Source of the DNA: Bacillota bacterium
GTDB taxonomy: Bacteria; Bacillota; Clostridia; Caldicoprobacterales; Xylanivirgaceae
Length of the DNA stretch: 57,947 nucleotides
Reading direction: 5' to 3'
NCBI GenBank assembly: GCA_023621995.1
Contig: JAMOAB010000170.1
Coordinates: forward strand, 1-57,947
Below, piece after piece: positions 44,157 through 56,785 of this stretch. The position numbers and the translations under genes are program-made. Positions within the stretch are counted from its first letter, which is position 1, and each line of letters starts with the position of its first letter. A model generated the notes under the pieces. The model worked only from the letters and a program-made list of their open reading frames with translations. It was not told the DNA's origin and made no database searches.

Positions 44157-46349
44157 TTACCACCCCATCTCTATACCCTTTTTCTCATGTAATATATATT
44201 GTTTTAAAACGTTAAAATATATAGAAGGAGTATTGTATGTAGACAATATTAGATATCTCTTTGCCCTTGTCATACCTACATATAATAGTCTGACCTTTTC
44301 ATTTATTATATCAATCTTGGATTGTTCTATATAGTCATGACTACTCCCTAATCCTATAACCTCATCAAACTGGACCTTTGCAATGGCATCTGGATTTTGG
44401 TACTCCTCTTTCAGATAATAGCAATCCCCCATAAATTTATCGTCCAATGTGGCAGGAAAATAGTAAGATGTCATAGACATTAGAAATACAGTGTCCCATT
44501 CCAGTCCCTTTGCCTTATGATAGGTAGATACCGTCACTTCCCCTGGACTTGGTTCAAATCCTTGCATATCATAGACAATGTTTGCAAAATAATTATAAGA
44601 ATTCTCAATACTTTTAAGCTCTTGAGCAAGGTCTATAAGGGACCAACTAGGATTCAGAGAGACCAGATACCGAATATCACTAGCTATCTTCTGTGCAATG
44701 GCCATTCTATCCCAATCGAAATTTAGTCTCTCAGCTATGTGTAACACTAAATATTCTGGCATCTCTCCTGATAATTCTAAAAACTCTCTGAGCAGTGGAA
44801 TTATCTCCTCAAATTTATTCCATATTCTTATCTCCACCAGTTCTTCAGGTATTTTTGTGCTGTCTATACGTCCATATAGTGGATATAAGAGTTCTTCTAC
44901 TGGCACATTTCCAAGGAAAGCAAATAATTTTTCTAGATCTTCCTCTTCTTCATCTTGAAGCATATATTCTAATACTTTTATAAAACGTCTATTATCATAT
45001 GGAAATACAATAAAATCTAACACTGCACCTATTACATTTGCTGCATAGGCCCTCTCTCTAGGAAAGCGGGTTATCTCTTTAAATGGAATACGTCTCTTTT
45101 CTAATTCATCTATGAGTTCATTTGCTGCCCAATTGGTAGGGACAAGTACAGCAATCGTTCTATCAGGATGTAACGATATATGTCCTTCACACTTCTTTGC
45201 AATATATTCAAGTTCTTCCTTTTTATTTTTAAATTCTTTAAAGTAAACAGAACACTCTTCTACAACCGGATTAGGATGGGGATCGTCTGCACCCACTTCT
45301 TCTATATATTGAGGCTCTAAACTCTCCCTACAATCTTTACAGGGATGAAATTTCCTCACCCAATCTACAAAGAAATTTGATATATCTATAACATGGGAGC
45401 AACTTCTACTTGCCACATTTATTGACTGTACATCTGTAAATGGATTGTTACAAAAATCTCTAAAGAGTTTAGGATCGGATATTGTAAATGTGGACATAAT
45501 GGCTTGGTTACTATCACCTACTCTTAAAAGATTCCCTGACTTTTCCGATAGCATTATAAGTAGGTCTTGCTGTATGATATTACTATCTTGGGCCTCGTCT
45601 TCAAATATAAATGTATAACGATTTTGATATTTTTCTAATAGTACTGTATCCTCCCTAAGAAGCTTGAGGGCACCTACTAAAATATCGTCAAAATCTATAA
45701 GTCCTCTAACCTTGAGAGTCGCATCATATTCATTATATAGCTCTACTAACCATTTTAAGGGAAACATTTTGTCTTTAGATTCTATTAGTTTCATCAAATT
45801 AGCACCGTCATATCCATGGACCTTAAAGTATGAAAAACTTCCTATGGCGATCTTAAAAAAATCTCTCTCCCATTTTTCCTCCATATTCACTATATGCTGA
45901 TGGGGATAACCCCTAGCATCTATGAGAGAGTTAAATTCTTGACGATTTCTAGATAGCCATTTTGAAAAAATTTCTCTGAACAATTCTGCCTGTTTGGTAT
46001 CATCGAGTATGATAAATTCATCATCAATTAAGATTCTATCAGGTTTCTCCCTTATTATCTTCATTGCTAAAGTATGGAGAGTCATTACTTCATATCCTTC
46101 CATAGGATTTAGTCCCCTCTCCTTTAAAAGACTATACAACTTTTGTTTAAAATTAGCCACTGCACTATTCATGTATGTGACTATGAGTATCTTACCAGGT
46201 CTATGGCTGCCATCTTCTATGAGTTTTGCTGCTAGCTGGGTTAATACGAAGGTTTTCCCTGCACCAGGTACACTAGGTACTGCCATATAACCTCCATCAT
46301 ATTCCATAACCTTGTCCTGTCCTTTGCGAAATACTATCTTCTCAGTCAT
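44157..46349 (-). CDS. UvrD/PcrA-type SF1A DNA helicase
   Basis: The 730-residue 3'-5' helicase has complete SF1A motifs: motif I PSVPGAGKTFVL (24-36), Ia, motif II FIFEDEAQDS (about 248-257), motif III GDSNQAIMSTF, motif IV near AVLVPTN, motif V VSTYHKAKGLEWDTVFLMS and motif VI RLLYVGMTRAKRYLIL. There is no nuclease domain at the C-terminus, which AddA and RecB have. It overlaps the gene upstream by 4 bases and its stop lies against the nuclease gene, so the three products are probably made together. The extra domains differ from housekeeping PcrA (for instance no typical PcrA C-terminal tail). Likely motor of a nuclease-helicase complex. Confidence 0.85.
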   Translation of the reverse strand: MTEKIVFRKGQDKVMEYDGGYMAVPSVPGAGKTFVLTQLAAKLIEDGSHRPGKILIVTYMNSAVANFKQKLYSLLKERGLNPMEGYEVMTLHTLAMKIIREKPDRILIDDEFIILDDTKQAELFREIFSKWLSRNRQEFNSLIDARGYPHQHIVNMEEKWERDFFKIAIGSFSYFKVHGYDGANLMKLIESKDKMFPLKWLVELYNEYDATLKVRGLIDFDDILVGALKLLREDTVLLEKYQNRYTFIFEDEAQDSNIIQQDLLIMLSEKSGNLLRVGDSNQAIMSTFTISDPKLFRDFCNNPFTDVQSINVASRSCSHVIDISNFFVDWVRKFHPCKDCRESLEPQYIEEVGADDPHPNPVVEECSVYFKEFKNKKEELEYIAKKCEGHISLHPDRTIAVLVPTNWAANELIDELEKRRIPFKEITRFPRERAYAANVIGAVLDFIVFPYDNRRFIKVLEYMLQDEEEEDLEKLFAFLGNVPVEELLYPLYGRIDSTKIPEELVEIRIWNKFEEIIPLLREFLELSGEMPEYLVLHIAERLNFDWDRMAIAQKIASDIRYLVSLNPSWSLIDLAQELKSIENSYNYFANIVYDMQGFEPSPGEVTVSTYHKAKGLEWDTVFLMSMTSYYFPATLDDKFMGDCYYLKEEYQNPDAIAKVQFDEVIGLGSSHDYIEQSKIDIINEKVRLLYVGMTRAKRYLILSTYNTPSIYFNVLKQYILHEKKGIEMGW

Positions 46350-48394
46350 TGATTTCGCCCCCTATTGTCCATTGCCTCACTCCATAGATTGGCGAGTATA
46401 CCTTCATCTTCATAACCTTGGCTACTGTATTGACTAGATGTAAGTATCACCTTTTCACCACAGCGCTTCAATAGACAATTTACTATTGTAGATAATTTAT
46501 ATCGCATGAATAACTCTTCATCCTCCGATGTAATTGGTCTTAATTCATCCCACAATTTAGAGAGTACATAGGGATTTGTAAATATTTTCACATCTCTAGG
46601 TGTCCAGTTACTACTCCTTATATCACACCACACTTGTACTTTTCTGTGTCGCGATGTAGAAAGATATTGAATCGGTGTTGTCAGTAATATACCTTGCTCA
46701 TGTAGGGCAGCCTCTAGATCTATCATTGTCTCAGATTGCTTTGCGCCTTCCATAAACATAAGAATAAATTCTTTCCCTATGTCAACATGAGCACCAAATG
46801 GAGTTAGACTATGTATAAAGGCTTCAGCTGTATCAATGAGCTGTCTACATGCCGTGAGATTTTCATATACTTCAGGTAAAGTTATAAGTATCTCAAGAAA
46901 TACCCGTCTAAAGAAAAGATCAATAGGCATGGGAGAAGCTGCTATATACTCAAGTAACCATCTCCTTATATATTCATATTTTTCTGAATTACTAAATCCT
47001 ATACGTTCACGCCATTTAGGTCCTTCTATAGGAGGAAACATATAGGGTTCTTCTTGAACTACTTGTCTGGCAATAAGACTGCTACGTACAGGGTCCATAT
47101 CTAGTATTAAAGATATTGCATCAGCAATATCTTTTTGACTTGGTAATACTCCGTATGAAGGATGGGCTAGGCATGCAAGAACTATCATTGCGTTTGTATA
47201 TGGATTGTCCATTGCACGTCTCCGCCTTGAAGTATTTATAACCTCTATGTCCCTATCGGTAAAATAGCCCATAATACTACACTCTAAGACTGTGTCTATA
47301 AAAGGAGCAATTATTGCAATATCCTGTGGCAATACTCCTTCCTTGTCTATTAAGGACCATACCCTCTCTTTAAGTTCATCTATCATCTGACTACGAAGGG
47401 GCACATCTATATCCCATTCTACCTGTAAACTGTCAGGGATCGATGGGAGAGGAGCATCTTTATCTACTATAGAATGGCTAAAACAATCTGCAAACCTAAA
47501 CATATCTTCACTACATGTATAACTATGGGAAAGTTCTACTTGATAGCATAGGGAACTTATCTTAGCAAGGGCATATTCAGGATCAGCCCCATAGAACCTA
47601 CTATATCCGCCATCAGTACAGTAACACAACAGAGCACCCTTTGATCCTTGAAGCAATGTCTCCACCAGATCGGTTCCGGCAGGCGCCATCTCCTCCAAAT
47701 TATCTACTAAAAGTATAGGATATTGCTTCCTAAGTGCCTTTACGTATTGTTCCTCCTTAAGTAAAACTTCGCAATATAACATAGTAGCTAAACCATAGTC
47801 CAAACATCCCTTCTCTAGACATATGGATACATAGTCCTTCAAGATTATAGCGATTTCATCATATATTGCCTGTTCAAATAAAGTATCTATGCTACTCGCC
47901 TGTTTTAATCTACTGGCTATATGGGTATATGGTATGCCAGCCAGGGCTGCCCGAGATAATGTAGCAGTAAGTTCAATGGCTATACGATCAGTGGGAACAG
48001 CCACACCTGCAAAAAACTCTATATCCCTACGCCTTTTATCTATACATTCCCCCATTATATACTGTGATCCCTCAAATGATAGAAACACTGGCTCTAAGTC
48101 TTTGTGTCCAATTTGTGGATATAGATCTAGAATTAGGGGCCAATATTTTCTCAATTGCTGCTGGACAAAACCAAAAAATGAGGTACGTACTACTTTACCT
48201 GGCACCTTCATATCGACCTTTTCCCGCCATATAAATGATTGTGCTCTATTCATGACAAGAAGAAGTATGTTAGCACTATCCCAGCCTGCTTCTATATATT
48301 CTAAGTATCTTCTCTTTAGAAAAGTGGTCTTACCTGATCCTACAGGACCAATTATAAGCGTTTTATCTTCTAAAGAAATGTCATGTATATTCAT
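46346..48394 (-). CDS. UvrD-like protein with degenerate helicase motifs (AddB/AdnA-like)
   Basis: A 682-residue protein starting with a good P-loop LIIGPVGSGKTTFLKRRY (13-30) and the AddB-like LLVMNRAQSFIWREKV segment. Motif II is altered (PILLVDNLEEMAP, DN in place of DE), motif III is altered (CTDGGYSRFYGADPEYA), and the region equal to motif V has TTPIQYLSTSRHRKVQVWC in place of HKAKGLE. No nuclease domain. This pattern resembles the inactivated-helicase partner in AddAB, RecBC and mycobacterial AdnAB. It overlaps both neighbours (ATGA) between a phosphoesterase and the active helicase. Probably a scaffold or strand-scanning subunit; this is inferred. Confidence 0.72.
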   Translation of the reverse strand: MNIHDISLEDKTLIIGPVGSGKTTFLKRRYLEYIEAGWDSANILLLVMNRAQSFIWREKVDMKVPGKVVRTSFFGFVQQQLRKYWPLILDLYPQIGHKDLEPVFLSFEGSQYIMGECIDKRRRDIEFFAGVAVPTDRIAIELTATLSRAALAGIPYTHIASRLKQASSIDTLFEQAIYDEIAIILKDYVSICLEKGCLDYGLATMLYCEVLLKEEQYVKALRKQYPILLVDNLEEMAPAGTDLVETLLQGSKGALLCYCTDGGYSRFYGADPEYALAKISSLCYQVELSHSYTCSEDMFRFADCFSHSIVDKDAPLPSIPDSLQVEWDIDVPLRSQMIDELKERVWSLIDKEGVLPQDIAIIAPFIDTVLECSIMGYFTDRDIEVINTSRRRRAMDNPYTNAMIVLACLAHPSYGVLPSQKDIADAISLILDMDPVRSSLIARQVVQEEPYMFPPIEGPKWRERIGFSNSEKYEYIRRWLLEYIAASPMPIDLFFRRVFLEILITLPEVYENLTACRQLIDTAEAFIHSLTPFGAHVDIGKEFILMFMEGAKQSETMIDLEAALHEQGILLTTPIQYLSTSRHRKVQVWCDIRSSNWTPRDVKIFTNPYVLSKLWDELRPITSEDEELFMRYKLSTIVNCLLKRCGEKVILTSSQYSSQGYEDEGILANLWSEAMDNRGRNQ

Positions 48395-51681: not shown

Positions 51682-52356
51682 CTATACATGTTTTTCGCTT
51701 CTATCCACAAGTTCTGGCTTCACTTTGGATAAAAAAGATACTATTAGAGAAGTTACGACACTCTCTAATATTATACCAATAGCTAATACTATGACGATAG
51801 CAAGCCAACCACTATAGCTCAAGAAATGTATAGCTTCATCATGATGGCCTTGGAGAATTGCATCGCTACTACCGGTAATAAGAAAGATCACACCGAATGT
51901 TATAGCAGTAGAAAGTATAAGAGCTAAGAAAGTAGCTAAAGCTGACGACATACTCCTTTTCCATTTTTTTGTGAATAGGCCATATAACTTATTACCCACA
52001 AGTACCTCGATACCTATTATTGCAGTATTTATACCTACTACAGTTATGCCTCCATGTCCCATAAAGGCTAGTATCAAATTTACTACAAACACGCCTATAA
52101 ATCCTAACTCAGGGCCTACTATTATTCCGCAGAGGGAGGCAAGATTTAGATGAAAAGGTATAAATCCTAGTGGAACCGACATGGTTACTAACATCATTGC
52201 CGATATTGATCCTGCTAATGGTATTTTTTTGCCCACTTGTTCCCTGTCCAGCCTTCTAAGGATGAAAAAAAGAAATATCAATGTCACAGCAAAGCCAATT
52301 ACGAGTAGCCACCACGCATCTCTAGCTACACCATCGGGTATATGTATATGACTCAT
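51682..52356 (-). CDS. cbiM: Cobalt/nickel ECF substrate-binding membrane protein CbiM/NikM
   Basis: Substrate-capture membrane protein, 224 residues, about six to seven helices. The N-terminal HIHIPDGV motif is the signature of the CbiM/NikM family, where the N-terminus reaches into the pocket and binds Co(II) or Ni(II). PLGFIPFHLNLASLCGIIVGPELGF and LAFMGHGGITVVGINTAIIG are conserved parts. The ATG at 52356 is chosen as it gives MSHIHIPDG and has GAGGAG nine bases upstream; the frame goes on to 52398. No cbiN or nikN gene is next to it, though the C-terminal membrane part may replace it. Co and Ni cannot be told apart here. Confidence 0.88.
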   Translation of the reverse strand: MSHIHIPDGVARDAWWLLVIGFAVTLIFLFFILRRLDREQVGKKIPLAGSISAMMLVTMSVPLGFIPFHLNLASLCGIIVGPELGFIGVFVVNLILAFMGHGGITVVGINTAIIGIEVLVGNKLYGLFTKKWKRSMSSALATFLALILSTAITFGVIFLITGSSDAILQGHHDEAIHFLSYSGWLAIVIVLAIGIILESVVTSLIVSFLSKVKPELVDRSEKHV

Positions 52357-52401
52357 AGTTTTCAACTCCTCTAATTGCATATGATTTGCATTTGTCATTT
52401 T

Positions 52402-52597: not shown

Positions 52598-55500
52598 ATG
52601 ATTTCATTAGCTGAAAAAGAAGATCAGCAATATACATCGCTTGACGATATATTAAAAATATTACGCAGAAAAGATAAATCAAAGAGGCCTCCCGCTTTTA
52701 CATGGGGACAGGTAGATGCCCGTGTACATCGAGAGATTTTATATAGAGTGGCTGAAGAGCTAAACCTCTCTAGTCCACGATTTATTGCATCTAAAGATTT
52801 AGAAAAACATAAATTTGAATTCTTAGGCTACTCTTCACTGAATGGCCTTTATTCATATTATAAAAACAGTGTTCCTAGGAAATCTGGAGTCCATGTTATA
52901 AAAAATGTATGTGATCGTCTTGCCATTCCACAGGTGAGTGAAGATGAATGGATACACTATATTGCTAACCATAATATTTTCTCATGGGGCAATGTTCCCA
53001 ACTCAGCAAAACGGAAAATACTCATAAGCGCAGCGCATGAATTAGGCTATCCCCATCCTATCTTCATTAAAAATGACGATTTTTCTGTAAAGTTTGAATT
53101 CTTAAACGGTAAAAGCCTCACCGGCTTTTATACATATTATAAGAATAGATCTGATGGGATTCGAGGTAGTGTAATAAAAGATATGTGCGACTCTCTTAAG
53201 ATAGATATAAATTATAATCATTGGATCGCCTATATCACAAGCGACTCTACTACTGTGTTTTGGGACATTATTCCCCAAGACGTAATGGCAAGAATGTTAT
53301 ATAATGCTGCATATGAGCTTGGCTATACCAATCCCCGTATGTTATCGACAGATGATATAAAAATAAAACTAGATTGTCTTGGAAATACAAGCTTATATAG
53401 TTTTGTATCCCGATTCTTTGGGGTTGAAAAAGGTGGTATGTCTAGTATAGATTATATATGCAATATGTATAATATTCCCCCCCTCACATTCAGAGAATGG
53501 GTAGATACCATATCCCGTAATAAAAACTACAATTGGGATCTTGCATCAAAAGAACACATTAGAGGTCTACTTTTTCTAAAGGCTAGGGAGCATGGCAAAG
53601 ATAATCCAAGGATGCTAAAATATGAGGATCTTTGTCAACCTACTAAGGCTTTGAGAGGCAAAACTCTTACCAATATCTATACATATTTTAGTAGCCTTCA
53701 GGGGTTAGAACTGGTAGGTCAAGCACCACAGCAAGACGTAATAGAATATATGTGTGACAAGCTCCACGTTCCCCATTTAAATACTGAACAATGGATAATT
53801 GTTATCGCTAGGGAAAATTCAAAAGTAAATTGGGCCTCTATTCCAAAAGACATAAAGTCCGATATATTATATAGAGCAGCATACGAATTAGGATTTAAAA
53901 GCCCCCGATTTATGGATTATAAAGATATATGTAATACTAAATTTAATTTTTTAAATGGTAAAACCCTATCAGGACTCTATTATTATTACAGCAATAAAGT
54001 AAACTTTAAAGATGGTCCTATACTTCAATATATGTATGATGATCTCAAAATAGAAAACCTTACCATAAATGATTGGATAATTGCAATTGGCAATTGCAAT
54101 ACATGTAGATGGGAGAGTGTTCCCCTCAAAGTTCAACGAGAAATAATAATCAGGGCGGCAGCTGAAATGGGACTTGCCCATCCTAGACTTATGGGAACTA
54201 GAGAATTCGATTCGGTAGAATTGGCTTTTTTAAATAATAAAACCCTATGCGGACTCTACTATCATTATGCAGCTAAATTGCCTGATAAGGACATGCAGAT
54301 AAATGAGTATATTTTTAATGTTCTTAATATACCTAAACTAGATATACATCCAAATACCGGCAGAATAAATACAATAGATAATGAAAACCATAGAAAATAC
54401 TTTGATAGCATGGCAAATATGAAGGCTTTCGTAAATAATTATCTACAACACTTTTCCTTGGAGAGTCTCTGTCGAAAGTATACTGCTATAAATAATGCTA
54501 AAAAAGCAGGGATATATAAAAAAGGCCTAGTAACTGTGCTTGCTCCTCTGACTAAGGAAGAATACTTAGATTTATTATACGAAGTTTTAAAAAATGTACC
54601 AAGGGACACCTTTTCCCTTAGGAAACCCCGAAATGGGGATTATAGACTTCGTAAATCTGATCTCTACAAAATAGCCAAGGTAGAAGAACTACCTACTCAA
54701 GAAGAGAACAAAATCTTCTTTGCCCAACCCCATAAAGTATCTTTAAAGGATAGGCAAGAAGTTATAGAATTTCTCAACGTATATAGGGATATATTAGAGA
54801 TAAAGATTCAAAAATTCCATGACATAAATTGTACTTTCTTAGTAACCCTCGATAATTCGGTTATATATAAGATACCTGTCGCACTATTCCCAGGTGATAT
54901 AATTAATGTTGACGGGATATGGGAATTTGAAGTCTTAGAATGTAGGGAAAGGAAGATAAATGATGGTTATATAGTAGAGCTAATGCCCCTAGATGATCTA
55001 TCTGAAGAACAGTTAAGTAATATAGATTCCTTTACTCGAGATTCTAATGATAGCATTCTTCTAAATTATATTGAGGAGACAATAGATAATATCAAAGAAG
55101 ACAACTTAAACAGACTTCTCTCTGTAGTCTTGGGCTTGGAGAAAGAGAAAACCATATGTGAGGATGATATTATAGACCTATCGGATAATGATTTTTACAA
55201 TGCTTCAATACTTAAAAATATTTCACAAAAACAAGGGGTCAAACTTGCCTGTTCTTTGGACGGTAATGACAATGTACTTGCTATAATTCAAGGTCCTCCT
55301 GGTACTGGTAAGACTACCCTCATTGAGGAAATTGCCCTCCAATACTACAATAGGGGCAAAGATGTTCTTATAATGGCAAAGACAAATATCGCCGTAGATA
55401 ATATATTAGAGAAGCTGGTAAAAGATAAGGTTAGGGTATTGCGTACTGGCAATAATATAGAACTTAAGTCATCATTGCCCTATGCCCACACTATTTCAAC

Positions 55501-56518
55501 GTCTAACCCCGAATATATGACTCTATTAGGCAATAAAAATAAAATTGTTCTTGGAACACCTATGGGTTTCTTCTTGGATAAAAACTTTGACATAAATAAG
55601 TACGACATACTTATAATAGACGAAGCTTCCCAGATGGATATGCCAGAAACATTGTTTGCTCTCCAATTTGCCGATAGATGTGTAATGATAGGTGATCACC
55701 TACAGATACCTCCCTTCCCCATTCAAAATGAGGTTCTTATGGAATATAACCCATATATGGATCTACAAACTAGGGAGGAGCTACAAAAGAGCCTATTCGA
55801 GATGCTCATAACTGACGTCCATAGATATAATAGCGTGTTTTTAGATATAAATTATAGGACAGAAAATCCACATATGGTATCCCTCATATCCGATCTCATA
55901 TATGATGGAAAGTTATGTCCTAACTTGGATTCAGAATACTATAAAGTTCCAAAGGGTATGCGGAAAAAGCTCTTCCCTGGGAATTCTATAGAGATAATAG
56001 ATACATCAGATATAACCGATCCCCACACAAGGATGGAAACAGAAATTAACTCTACCTACTACAACTTGACTGAGGCTATGTTATCTATCAAGAAGGTATT
56101 GGATCTTCTAGATGAAGGAGCTGAACTAAACAATATCTGCATAATAACACCGTATAAAGCCCATGCAGAAAAGATAAAAGAGCTCTTTTTAACCCACTCT
56201 AAATACTTTACAGAAAATAATCAGGGGTTAGGCCAATTTATAAATAAGAATATCTATACTATCGATTCATTTCAGGGGCGCGAACAAGATATTGTCATTA
56301 TAAACTGGGTAAGGAGTAACTATGGATTGCCTGGCTCTCCCACTAAGACTGGATTTTTGCGGGATTTTAGAAGAGTAAATGTTGCACTATCACGGGCTAA
56401 AAAAAGGCTAATACTTGTAGGGGATTTCGAAACCCTCACCCAATCAGATAATATGAGGGTCCGTTATATCTTCTCTAAATTAAAAACAATAAAGGAAGAA
56501 GAAAAAATTGTCCTATAG
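52598..56518 (+). CDS. UPF1/DNA2-type SF1B helicase with six N-terminal ~92-residue repeats
   Basis: This 1306-residue protein has two halves. Residues about 34-590 hold six tandem repeats of 91-99 residues; the anchor Trp is at 36, 130, 222, 313, 412 and 505. The consensus is roughly W..VP...RREILYRAA.ELG...PR, then F.FLNGKTL.GLY.YY, then I.YMCD.LKIP.L....WI..IA. I do not know this repeat. A linker (about 590-870) has a beta-rich part. The helicase (about 880-1290) has motif I QGPPGTGKTT (G899), motif II IIDEAS (D1008), III GDHLQIPP, IV INYRTENPHM, V TIDSFQGREQDIVI and VI RRVNVALSRAKKR. No nuclease motif seen. AGAAGGAG ribosome site; TATAAT near 52532 may be its -10. Single plus-strand gene, no obvious partner. 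Confidence 0.85.
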   Translation: MISLAEKEDQQYTSLDDILKILRRKDKSKRPPAFTWGQVDARVHREILYRVAEELNLSSPRFIASKDLEKHKFEFLGYSSLNGLYSYYKNSVPRKSGVHVIKNVCDRLAIPQVSEDEWIHYIANHNIFSWGNVPNSAKRKILISAAHELGYPHPIFIKNDDFSVKFEFLNGKSLTGFYTYYKNRSDGIRGSVIKDMCDSLKIDINYNHWIAYITSDSTTVFWDIIPQDVMARMLYNAAYELGYTNPRMLSTDDIKIKLDCLGNTSLYSFVSRFFGVEKGGMSSIDYICNMYNIPPLTFREWVDTISRNKNYNWDLASKEHIRGLLFLKAREHGKDNPRMLKYEDLCQPTKALRGKTLTNIYTYFSSLQGLELVGQAPQQDVIEYMCDKLHVPHLNTEQWIIVIARENSKVNWASIPKDIKSDILYRAAYELGFKSPRFMDYKDICNTKFNFLNGKTLSGLYYYYSNKVNFKDGPILQYMYDDLKIENLTINDWIIAIGNCNTCRWESVPLKVQREIIIRAAAEMGLAHPRLMGTREFDSVELAFLNNKTLCGLYYHYAAKLPDKDMQINEYIFNVLNIPKLDIHPNTGRINTIDNENHRKYFDSMANMKAFVNNYLQHFSLESLCRKYTAINNAKKAGIYKKGLVTVLAPLTKEEYLDLLYEVLKNVPRDTFSLRKPRNGDYRLRKSDLYKIAKVEELPTQEENKIFFAQPHKVSLKDRQEVIEFLNVYRDILEIKIQKFHDINCTFLVTLDNSVIYKIPVALFPGDIINVDGIWEFEVLECRERKINDGYIVELMPLDDLSEEQLSNIDSFTRDSNDSILLNYIEETIDNIKEDNLNRLLSVVLGLEKEKTICEDDIIDLSDNDFYNASILKNISQKQGVKLACSLDGNDNVLAIIQGPPGTGKTTLIEEIALQYYNRGKDVLIMAKTNIAVDNILEKLVKDKVRVLRTGNNIELKSSLPYAHTISTSNPEYMTLLGNKNKIVLGTPMGFFLDKNFDINKYDILIIDEASQMDMPETLFALQFADRCVMIGDHLQIPPFPIQNEVLMEYNPYMDLQTREELQKSLFEMLITDVHRYNSVFLDINYRTENPHMVSLISDLIYDGKLCPNLDSEYYKVPKGMRKKLFPGNSIEIIDTSDITDPHTRMETEINSTYYNLTEAMLSIKKVLDLLDEGAELNNICIITPYKAHAEKIKELFLTHSKYFTENNQGLGQFINKNIYTIDSFQGREQDIVIINWVRSNYGLPGSPTKTGFLRDFRRVNVALSRAKKRLILVGDFETLTQSDNMRVRYIFSKLKTIKEEEKIVL

Positions 56519-56587: not shown

Positions 56588-56785
56588 ATGGACCGCTTAG
56601 CTCTTATTCTGGTTATTATAGGAGCTTTAAACTGGGGGTTGATAGGCCTGTTCCAGTTTGATCTAGTGGCCTCACTTTTCGGTGGACAGACATCTGTATT
56701 AAGCAGAATAATATATTCCCTAGTTGGAATAGTAGGACTCTATAGTATAACCTTTCTGTTTAGAGAGAGGGAAAAAATAACATAA
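56588..56785 (+). CDS. DUF378 family small membrane protein
   Basis: A 65-residue protein with two membrane helices (about 4-22 and 40-58) and the ALNWGLIGLFQFDLVASLFGG stretch found in DUF378, a widespread small membrane family of unknown role. TTAAGGAG ribosome site, eight bases before the ATG. It follows the helicase gene by 70 bases; an AT-rich gap with TATAAT near 56545 could hold its own promoter. The link to the helicase is not clear: DUF378 genes occur in many contexts. A strong hairpin follows its stop. Confidence 0.88.
   Translation: MDRLALILVIIGALNWGLIGLFQFDLVASLFGGQTSVLSRIIYSLVGIVGLYSITFLFREREKIT

What the first reader, a model, noticed from the sequence alone, without database searches (positions are those of the whole stretch)
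52598..56518. Large UPF1-like helicase with six copies of an unrecognised ~92-residue repeat
The helicase half is complete (motifs I-VI, G899 P-loop, D1008-E1009), but the N-terminal half is a modular array. Anchor tryptophans at residues 36, 130, 222, 313, 412 and 505 are 91-99 apart, and each unit carries three blocks: an AA-ELG-type helix with PR, an FLNGKTL-GLYYYY block and a CD-LKIP plus WI block. The units are diverged in sequence but steady in length; unit 3 is the most altered. Such arrays often read nucleic acid or protein partners in a unit-by-unit way. No nuclease, methylase or toxin partner is adjacent, so it may act alone in RNA or DNA handling, phage defence, or replication conflict.
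Basis: partly seen in the sequence, partly recalled or inferred. Interest (0 to 1): 0.8.

Follow-up and report, generated by a model that had tools for sequence, protein, structure and literature searches.

The report
Helicase with six-module helical arm
A large bacterial helicase carries an N-terminal arm of six repeated helical modules that match no protein family in the libraries searched; it is kept at one chromosomal site in an order of anaerobic bacteria and looks like a housekeeping enzyme, not a phage-defence gene.

Summary
ORF 52598-56518 (1306 aa) has six ~92-residue modules and an intact SF1B helicase core. The repeats are far from chance: best self-diagonal score 164 against a maximum of 47 in 100 shuffles. 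Pfam, NCBIfam and PHROGs have no convincing match for them. A single module is predicted with confidence (pLDDT 91.7) as a five-helix unit that superposes on no solved structure tried.

The setting changes the interpretation. In the order that contains Caldicoprobacter the gene is single-copy, about 1300 aa, with exactly six modules (18 of 30 genomes). It sits at a fixed site, its tree follows families and genera, and the array is as constrained as the motor (dN/dS 0.04-0.08). Beyond the order only one genus of another class has it, with five modules. No phage, plasmid or viral contig matched. The motor's nearest solved relative is DNA2, but no nuclease was found.

Best reading: an ATP-driven single-strand translocase docked through the array to a constant cellular partner. 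Stand-alone phage defence is unlikely. What the array binds is unknown.

The parts
52598..56518 (+). helicase gene, 1306 aa, ATG start, TAG stop
   Evidence: orthologues at 54-84% identity
52637..52918 (+). module 1 (residues ~14-107, re-phased)
   Evidence: module HMM 86.0 bits
52919..53194 (+). module 2 (residues ~108-199)
   Evidence: 115.7 bits
53195..53467 (+). module 3 (residues ~200-290)
   Evidence: 85.2 bits
53468..53764 (+). module 4 (residues ~291-389), with a 6-residue insertion seen only in genera g1 and g2
   Evidence: 89.6 bits; insertion
53765..54043 (+). module 5 (residues ~390-482)
   Evidence: 109.5 bits
54044..54337 (+). module 6 (residues ~483-580)
   Evidence: 107.5 bits
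54338..54751 (+). conserved helical linker (residues 581-718), basic, no family match
   Evidence: region 581-850 found only in the same gene apart from one weak 57-residue hit
54752..55096 (+). stalk-like helices and 1B beta-barrel (residues 719-833)
   Evidence: model 742-814 against Sen1 5mzn Z 7.5, rmsd 2.1 over 72
55196..56515 (+). RecA1 and RecA2 of the SF1B motor (residues 867-1306)
55292..55315 (+). Walker A, GPPGTGKT (899-906)
55619..55633 (+). motif II, DEASQ (1008-1012)
56588..56785 (+). DUF378 small membrane protein, 70 bp downstream on the same strand; conserved neighbour in f2 and part of f3
51682..52398 (-). cbiM, divergent upstream neighbour kept in f1 and f2

Best explanation
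A chromosomal housekeeping helicase of one bacterial order. The C-terminal motor (1B stalk and barrel, RecA1, RecA2) belongs to the UPF1/DNA2 group of SF1B enzymes and most likely moves 5' to 3' along single-stranded nucleic acid using ATP. Six all-helical modules precede it, in the position where DNA2 has its nuclease. They form a fixed-length docking arm that holds the motor on a constant cellular partner (a nucleoprotein machine or a structured nucleic acid), so that the motor can strip or unwind what lies there without cutting it. Shown: intact motor motifs, a 1B barrel in the model, the six-module array, no recognisable nuclease domain, fixed locus, vertical inheritance, equal constraint on array and motor. 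Inferred: polarity, DNA or RNA as the track, and docking as the role of the array.
For: Motor: intact motifs and SF1B relatives; 1B barrel. Array: six modules in all orthologues of the order, conserved before the order diversified. Housekeeping: single copy in 18 of 30 genomes of the order; families and genera monophyletic in the tree; conserved neighbours; dN/dS 0.04-0.08 for the array against 0.04-0.06 for the motor; no match in phages, plasmids or viral contigs. Bacterial DNA2-like Bad moves 5' to 3' on ssDNA (PMC7430649).
Against: No ligand or partner of the array is known; docking is an inference. The gene is absent from most genomes of family f4, so it is not indispensable in the whole order. 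In the five-module genus the array evolves 2-4 times faster than the motor.
Confidence: 0.5

Rival explanations
1. The modules are nucleic-acid-binding domains, possibly diverged Cro/C1-type helix-turn-helix relatives, and the array binds a stretch of DNA or RNA module by module before the motor engages.
For: Weak HTH_26 match in 4 of 75 units, best E 0.0037; profile-profile P 2.2e-5 over 47 columns against 0.0018 for the best of 150 permuted controls; most weak fold hits in the PDB and viral lists are Cro/C1 HTH proteins.
Against: The family was chosen because it came first among many, which weakens the P value. TM about 0.2 and rmsd about 12 A over the matched stretches; the second aligner gave no Z of 2 or more. 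Net charge per unit -2 to +2.
Confidence: 0.27
2. The array regulates its own motor or tunes its stability (folding back on the barrel and RecA domains, as the Sen1 brace and the UPF1 CH domain do) and does not bind an outside partner.
For: Constant array length and equal constraint with the motor; N-terminal elements act on their own motor in Sen1 and UPF1 (PMC5452015).
Against: Six modules are far larger than such elements; nothing here shows contact with the motor, and pTM 0.47 leaves the arrangement open.
Confidence: 0.12
3. A stand-alone phage-defence protein, as many UPF1-related bacterial helicases are.
For: The best hit in the defence library is MkoA, E 4.7e-76, in the helicase part.
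Against: Fixed site, vertical descent, dN/dS 0.04-0.08, no PLD or NERD domain or nuclease neighbour, no spread on plasmids or phages. Neighbours with PADLOC hits are UvrD-type and metallophosphoesterase genes conserved in relatives, not a recognised complete system.
Confidence: 0.07

Closest known systems
DNA2, and the bacterial DNA2-like enzyme Bad (PMC7430649)
   Same: Best solved-structure hit; motor aligned without a break from before Walker A to motif VI
   Different: No RecB-family nuclease domain found and no conserved four-cysteine set; the module array stands in the nuclease's place
UPF1, IGHMBP2, Sen1, SETX (UPF1-like SF1B helicases)
   Same: RecA1/RecA2 motifs and a 1B barrel with stalk-like helices
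   Different: 21 residues where IGHMBP2 has 70, the expected place of the 1C prong; N-terminal array unknown in that family
Mokosh MkoA (PADLOC)
   Same: Helicase part matches at E 4.7e-76
   Different: No PLD or NERD domain in the protein, no PLD neighbour; fixed chromosomal gene
Cro/C1-type HTH domains (HTH_26)
   Same: Weak profile likeness of unit residues 40-86
   Different: No global superposition found; an 11-residue stretch separates the second and third helices of the unit

Membership tests
UPF1-like SF1B helicases | SF1 motor motifs in two RecA domains | tested here: met
UPF1-like SF1B helicases | Subdomain 1B, stalk and beta-barrel | tested here: met
   predicted model only: 742-814 against Sen1 Z 7.5, rmsd 2.1 over 72. 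Z of this size also occurs with unrelated beta-barrels in the same list; position before RecA1 and helices 719-739 and 817-833 fit
UPF1-like SF1B helicases | Subdomain 1C, prong | tested here: not met
   sequence only: 21 residues against 70 in IGHMBP2 at this place, none missing against DNA2. Hence filed as SF1B of the UPF1/DNA2 group, not as UPF1-like proper
UPF1-like SF1B helicases | 5' to 3' ATP-dependent unwinding | not testable with these tools
   needs biochemistry
DNA2 | N-terminal RecB-family nuclease with Fe-S cysteines | tested here: not met
   no nuclease family match in residues 1-850; no conserved four-cysteine set
IGHMBP2 family helicase TIGR00376 | Score above the curated cut-off of 348.9 bits | tested here: not met
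   220 bits
Mokosh | PLD-like domain (types I and II) and NERD domain (type I), as listed in PMC10952713 | tested here: not met
   no such match in residues 1-850 nor in the eight neighbours scanned; definition
Cro/C1 HTH (HTH_26), for the module | Profile match above the curated cut-off | tested here: inconclusive
   best E 0.0037 in 4 of 75 units; profile-profile P 2.2e-5
Cro/C1 HTH (HTH_26), for the module | Superposable five-helix HTH fold | tested here: inconclusive
   weak Foldseek hits with TM about 0.2; no Z of 2 or more; searched in the W-first phase only
HNH_repeat PF18780, for the module | Profile match over the ~54-residue repeat | tested here: inconclusive
   hhalign P 0.0026 over 20 columns only, about the level of the best permuted control of another family

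The most novel reading that the evidence does not exclude
The module is a new nucleic-acid-binding repeat whose array of fixed length reads a defined stretch of DNA or RNA module by module and positions the motor there: a natural sequence- or structure-addressed helicase.
Probability: 0.08. Interest if true: 0.85.

Novelty: new variant of a known kind. Interest (0 to 1): 0.5.

Why it matters
It defines a repeat module with no convincing match in the family libraries searched, fused to a well-understood motor and kept constant across an order of anaerobic bacteria that includes Caldicoprobacter. Its helicase part resembles proteins best known from phage defence, yet the gene behaves like a housekeeping gene, so it may show what such motors do for the cell outside immunity. 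Orthologues from heat-loving species would be good material for structural and single-molecule work.

Tried and rejected
Chance repetition (shuffles). A seventh unit in the linker (negative bit scores). Membership of Mokosh, DNA2 and TIGR00376 (see tests). A weak hit in G157 is a chance match with stops and no neighbouring repeats. Searching the linker and 1B region for other architectures found only the same gene, apart from a 57-residue hit in G553 at E 7.5e-4 that was not followed. Fold searches of the whole array returned mainly the 1B barrel, so the repeats were folded and searched alone; an absent match there does not prove a new fold. Sequence search of the PDB with the unit profile gave only weak hits (DCN1-like 0.07, DDX6 0.7). 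Paper searches found nothing on this protein. Not possible: a profile search outside the phylum; the one genome-contig scan used two short patterns and missed the five-module genus, so distant carriers may exist.

Full report
What is there. The ORF at 52598-56518 encodes 1306 residues. Residues 1-850 match no Pfam family; residues 870-1300 are an SF1 helicase (AAA_11 and AAA_12). Self-comparison of residues 1-610 gives the best diagonal at offset 93 with score 164, against at most 47 in 100 shuffles. A HMM from 75 units of 13 species finds six units in the window protein at 91.6-112.4 bits, six in every orthologue of the order that was aligned, five in the homologues of another class, and no seventh.

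Phase of the module. Starting modules about 22 residues before W gives six complete modules over residues ~14-580, and the five-module homologue starts at the same boundary. Consensus: EWIxxI...W...P....R.IL..AA.ELG..NPR.....DF...F.FLNGKTL.GLY..Y...........I..ICD.

Structure. The array model has mean pLDDT 80.6 but pTM 0.47, so single modules are better supported than their arrangement. The same helix pattern repeats six times. One unit alone (W-first phase, 75 sequences) reaches pLDDT 91.7 and pTM 0.81 with five helices. Foldseek finds no PDB match below E 3.6, the second aligner no Z of 2 or more, and the viral library nothing below E 1.0. Many of the weak hits are Cro/C1 HTH proteins, and profile-profile comparison with HTH_26 gives P 2.2e-5 over unit residues 40-86, against 0.0018 for the best of 150 column-permuted controls. 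This is a lead only: HTH_26 was picked because it came up first, and the structures do not superpose.

The motor. Residues 742-814 of the model form a beta-barrel like the 1B barrel of Sen1 (Z 7.5, rmsd 2.1 over 72), between stalk-like helices. The nearest solved sequence is DNA2 (1.5e-32), aligned in one stretch; IGHMBP2 has 70 residues where this protein has 21, the expected place of the 1C prong. No nuclease domain was found in residues 1-850 and no conserved four-cysteine set. PMC5452015 gives 1B and 1C as common to the UPF1-like helicases studied, so this protein is filed as SF1B of the UPF1/DNA2 group.

Distribution. The genome belongs to the order that contains Caldicoprobacter: contigs of G007 and G004 have the lengths of the C. 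oshimai and C. algeriensis contigs. A profile of the N-terminal half finds the gene in 18 of 30 genomes of the order. The unit profile finds nothing else in 381 genomes of the class (the one weak extra hit is noise), and among 398 of the phylum only one further genus, with five modules. No match in phages, plasmids or viral contigs.

Inheritance. Families f1-f4 and their genera are monophyletic in the protein tree. In the window, in f2 and in part of f3 a DUF378 gene follows within 10-70 bp on the same strand; cbiM lies upstream in f1 and f2, adk and a metallophosphoesterase upstream in f1 and f4. Six f4 genomes without the gene keep metallophosphoesterase, adk and cbiOQM on one side and a ychF-like gene on the other, with other genes between, including a chromate-transporter-like pair. 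The simplest reading is ancestral presence and loss in much of f4. Equivalent units of different species share 53-69% identity, different units 28-39%, so the array was complete before the order diversified. Among pairs of family f2, which holds Caldicoprobacter, dN/dS is 0.04-0.08 for the array and 0.04-0.06 for the motor; in the five-module genus the array is looser (0.17-0.28 against 0.07-0.10).

Interpretation. A conserved site, vertical descent and equal constraint on arm and motor point to a constant cellular target. The arm sits where DNA2 carries its nuclease, so a docking arm for a non-cutting motor is the most economical mechanism. What it docks to, and whether the track is DNA or RNA, is not shown by anything here. 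Near-neutral modules (net -2 to +2) and a basic linker (+7 over 581-730) hint that nucleic acid meets the linker and motor more than the arm (inference).

Limits. Genomes outside the phylum were seen only through one two-pattern scan, which missed the five-module genus. Group codes f1-f4 and g1 onwards are the tool's. The chromate-transporter, ychF and mraZ labels come from reading the sequences, not from a family search. No structure of the whole protein was predicted, so contacts between array and motor are unknown.

Noticed in passing
window 44157-48394 (-): Two adjacent UvrD-family-like genes next to a metallophosphoesterase and adk; PADLOC gives GajB at E 4e-48 for 44160-46349, but all are conserved at 71-79% in the sister genome G001.
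   Followed up: partly
L116-L121: In six f4 genomes without the helicase, a chromate-transporter-like gene pair and other genes lie between cbiM and a ychF-like gene.
   Followed up: partly
protein residues C105, C197, C288, C386: The ICD motif cysteine in the last helix of units 1-4; invariant in units 2-4 of nine aligned orthologues, S in the five-module genus at 105, where module 1 is missing.
   Followed up: no
L074-L076: In the five-module genus unit 5 is shortened by about 10 residues and the array is under looser constraint than the motor.
   Followed up: partly
L029 9155-12187 (-), L030 8944-11856 (+): Two f4 genomes lacking this gene carry another UPF1-type helicase of about 1000 aa with about 296 residues between Walker A and motif II, against 109 here.
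   Followed up: no
L016 8494-12513, L026 8937-12962: Runs of N in these two assemblies fall inside the gene, so their translations contain X and were left out of the structure alignments.
   Followed up: yes
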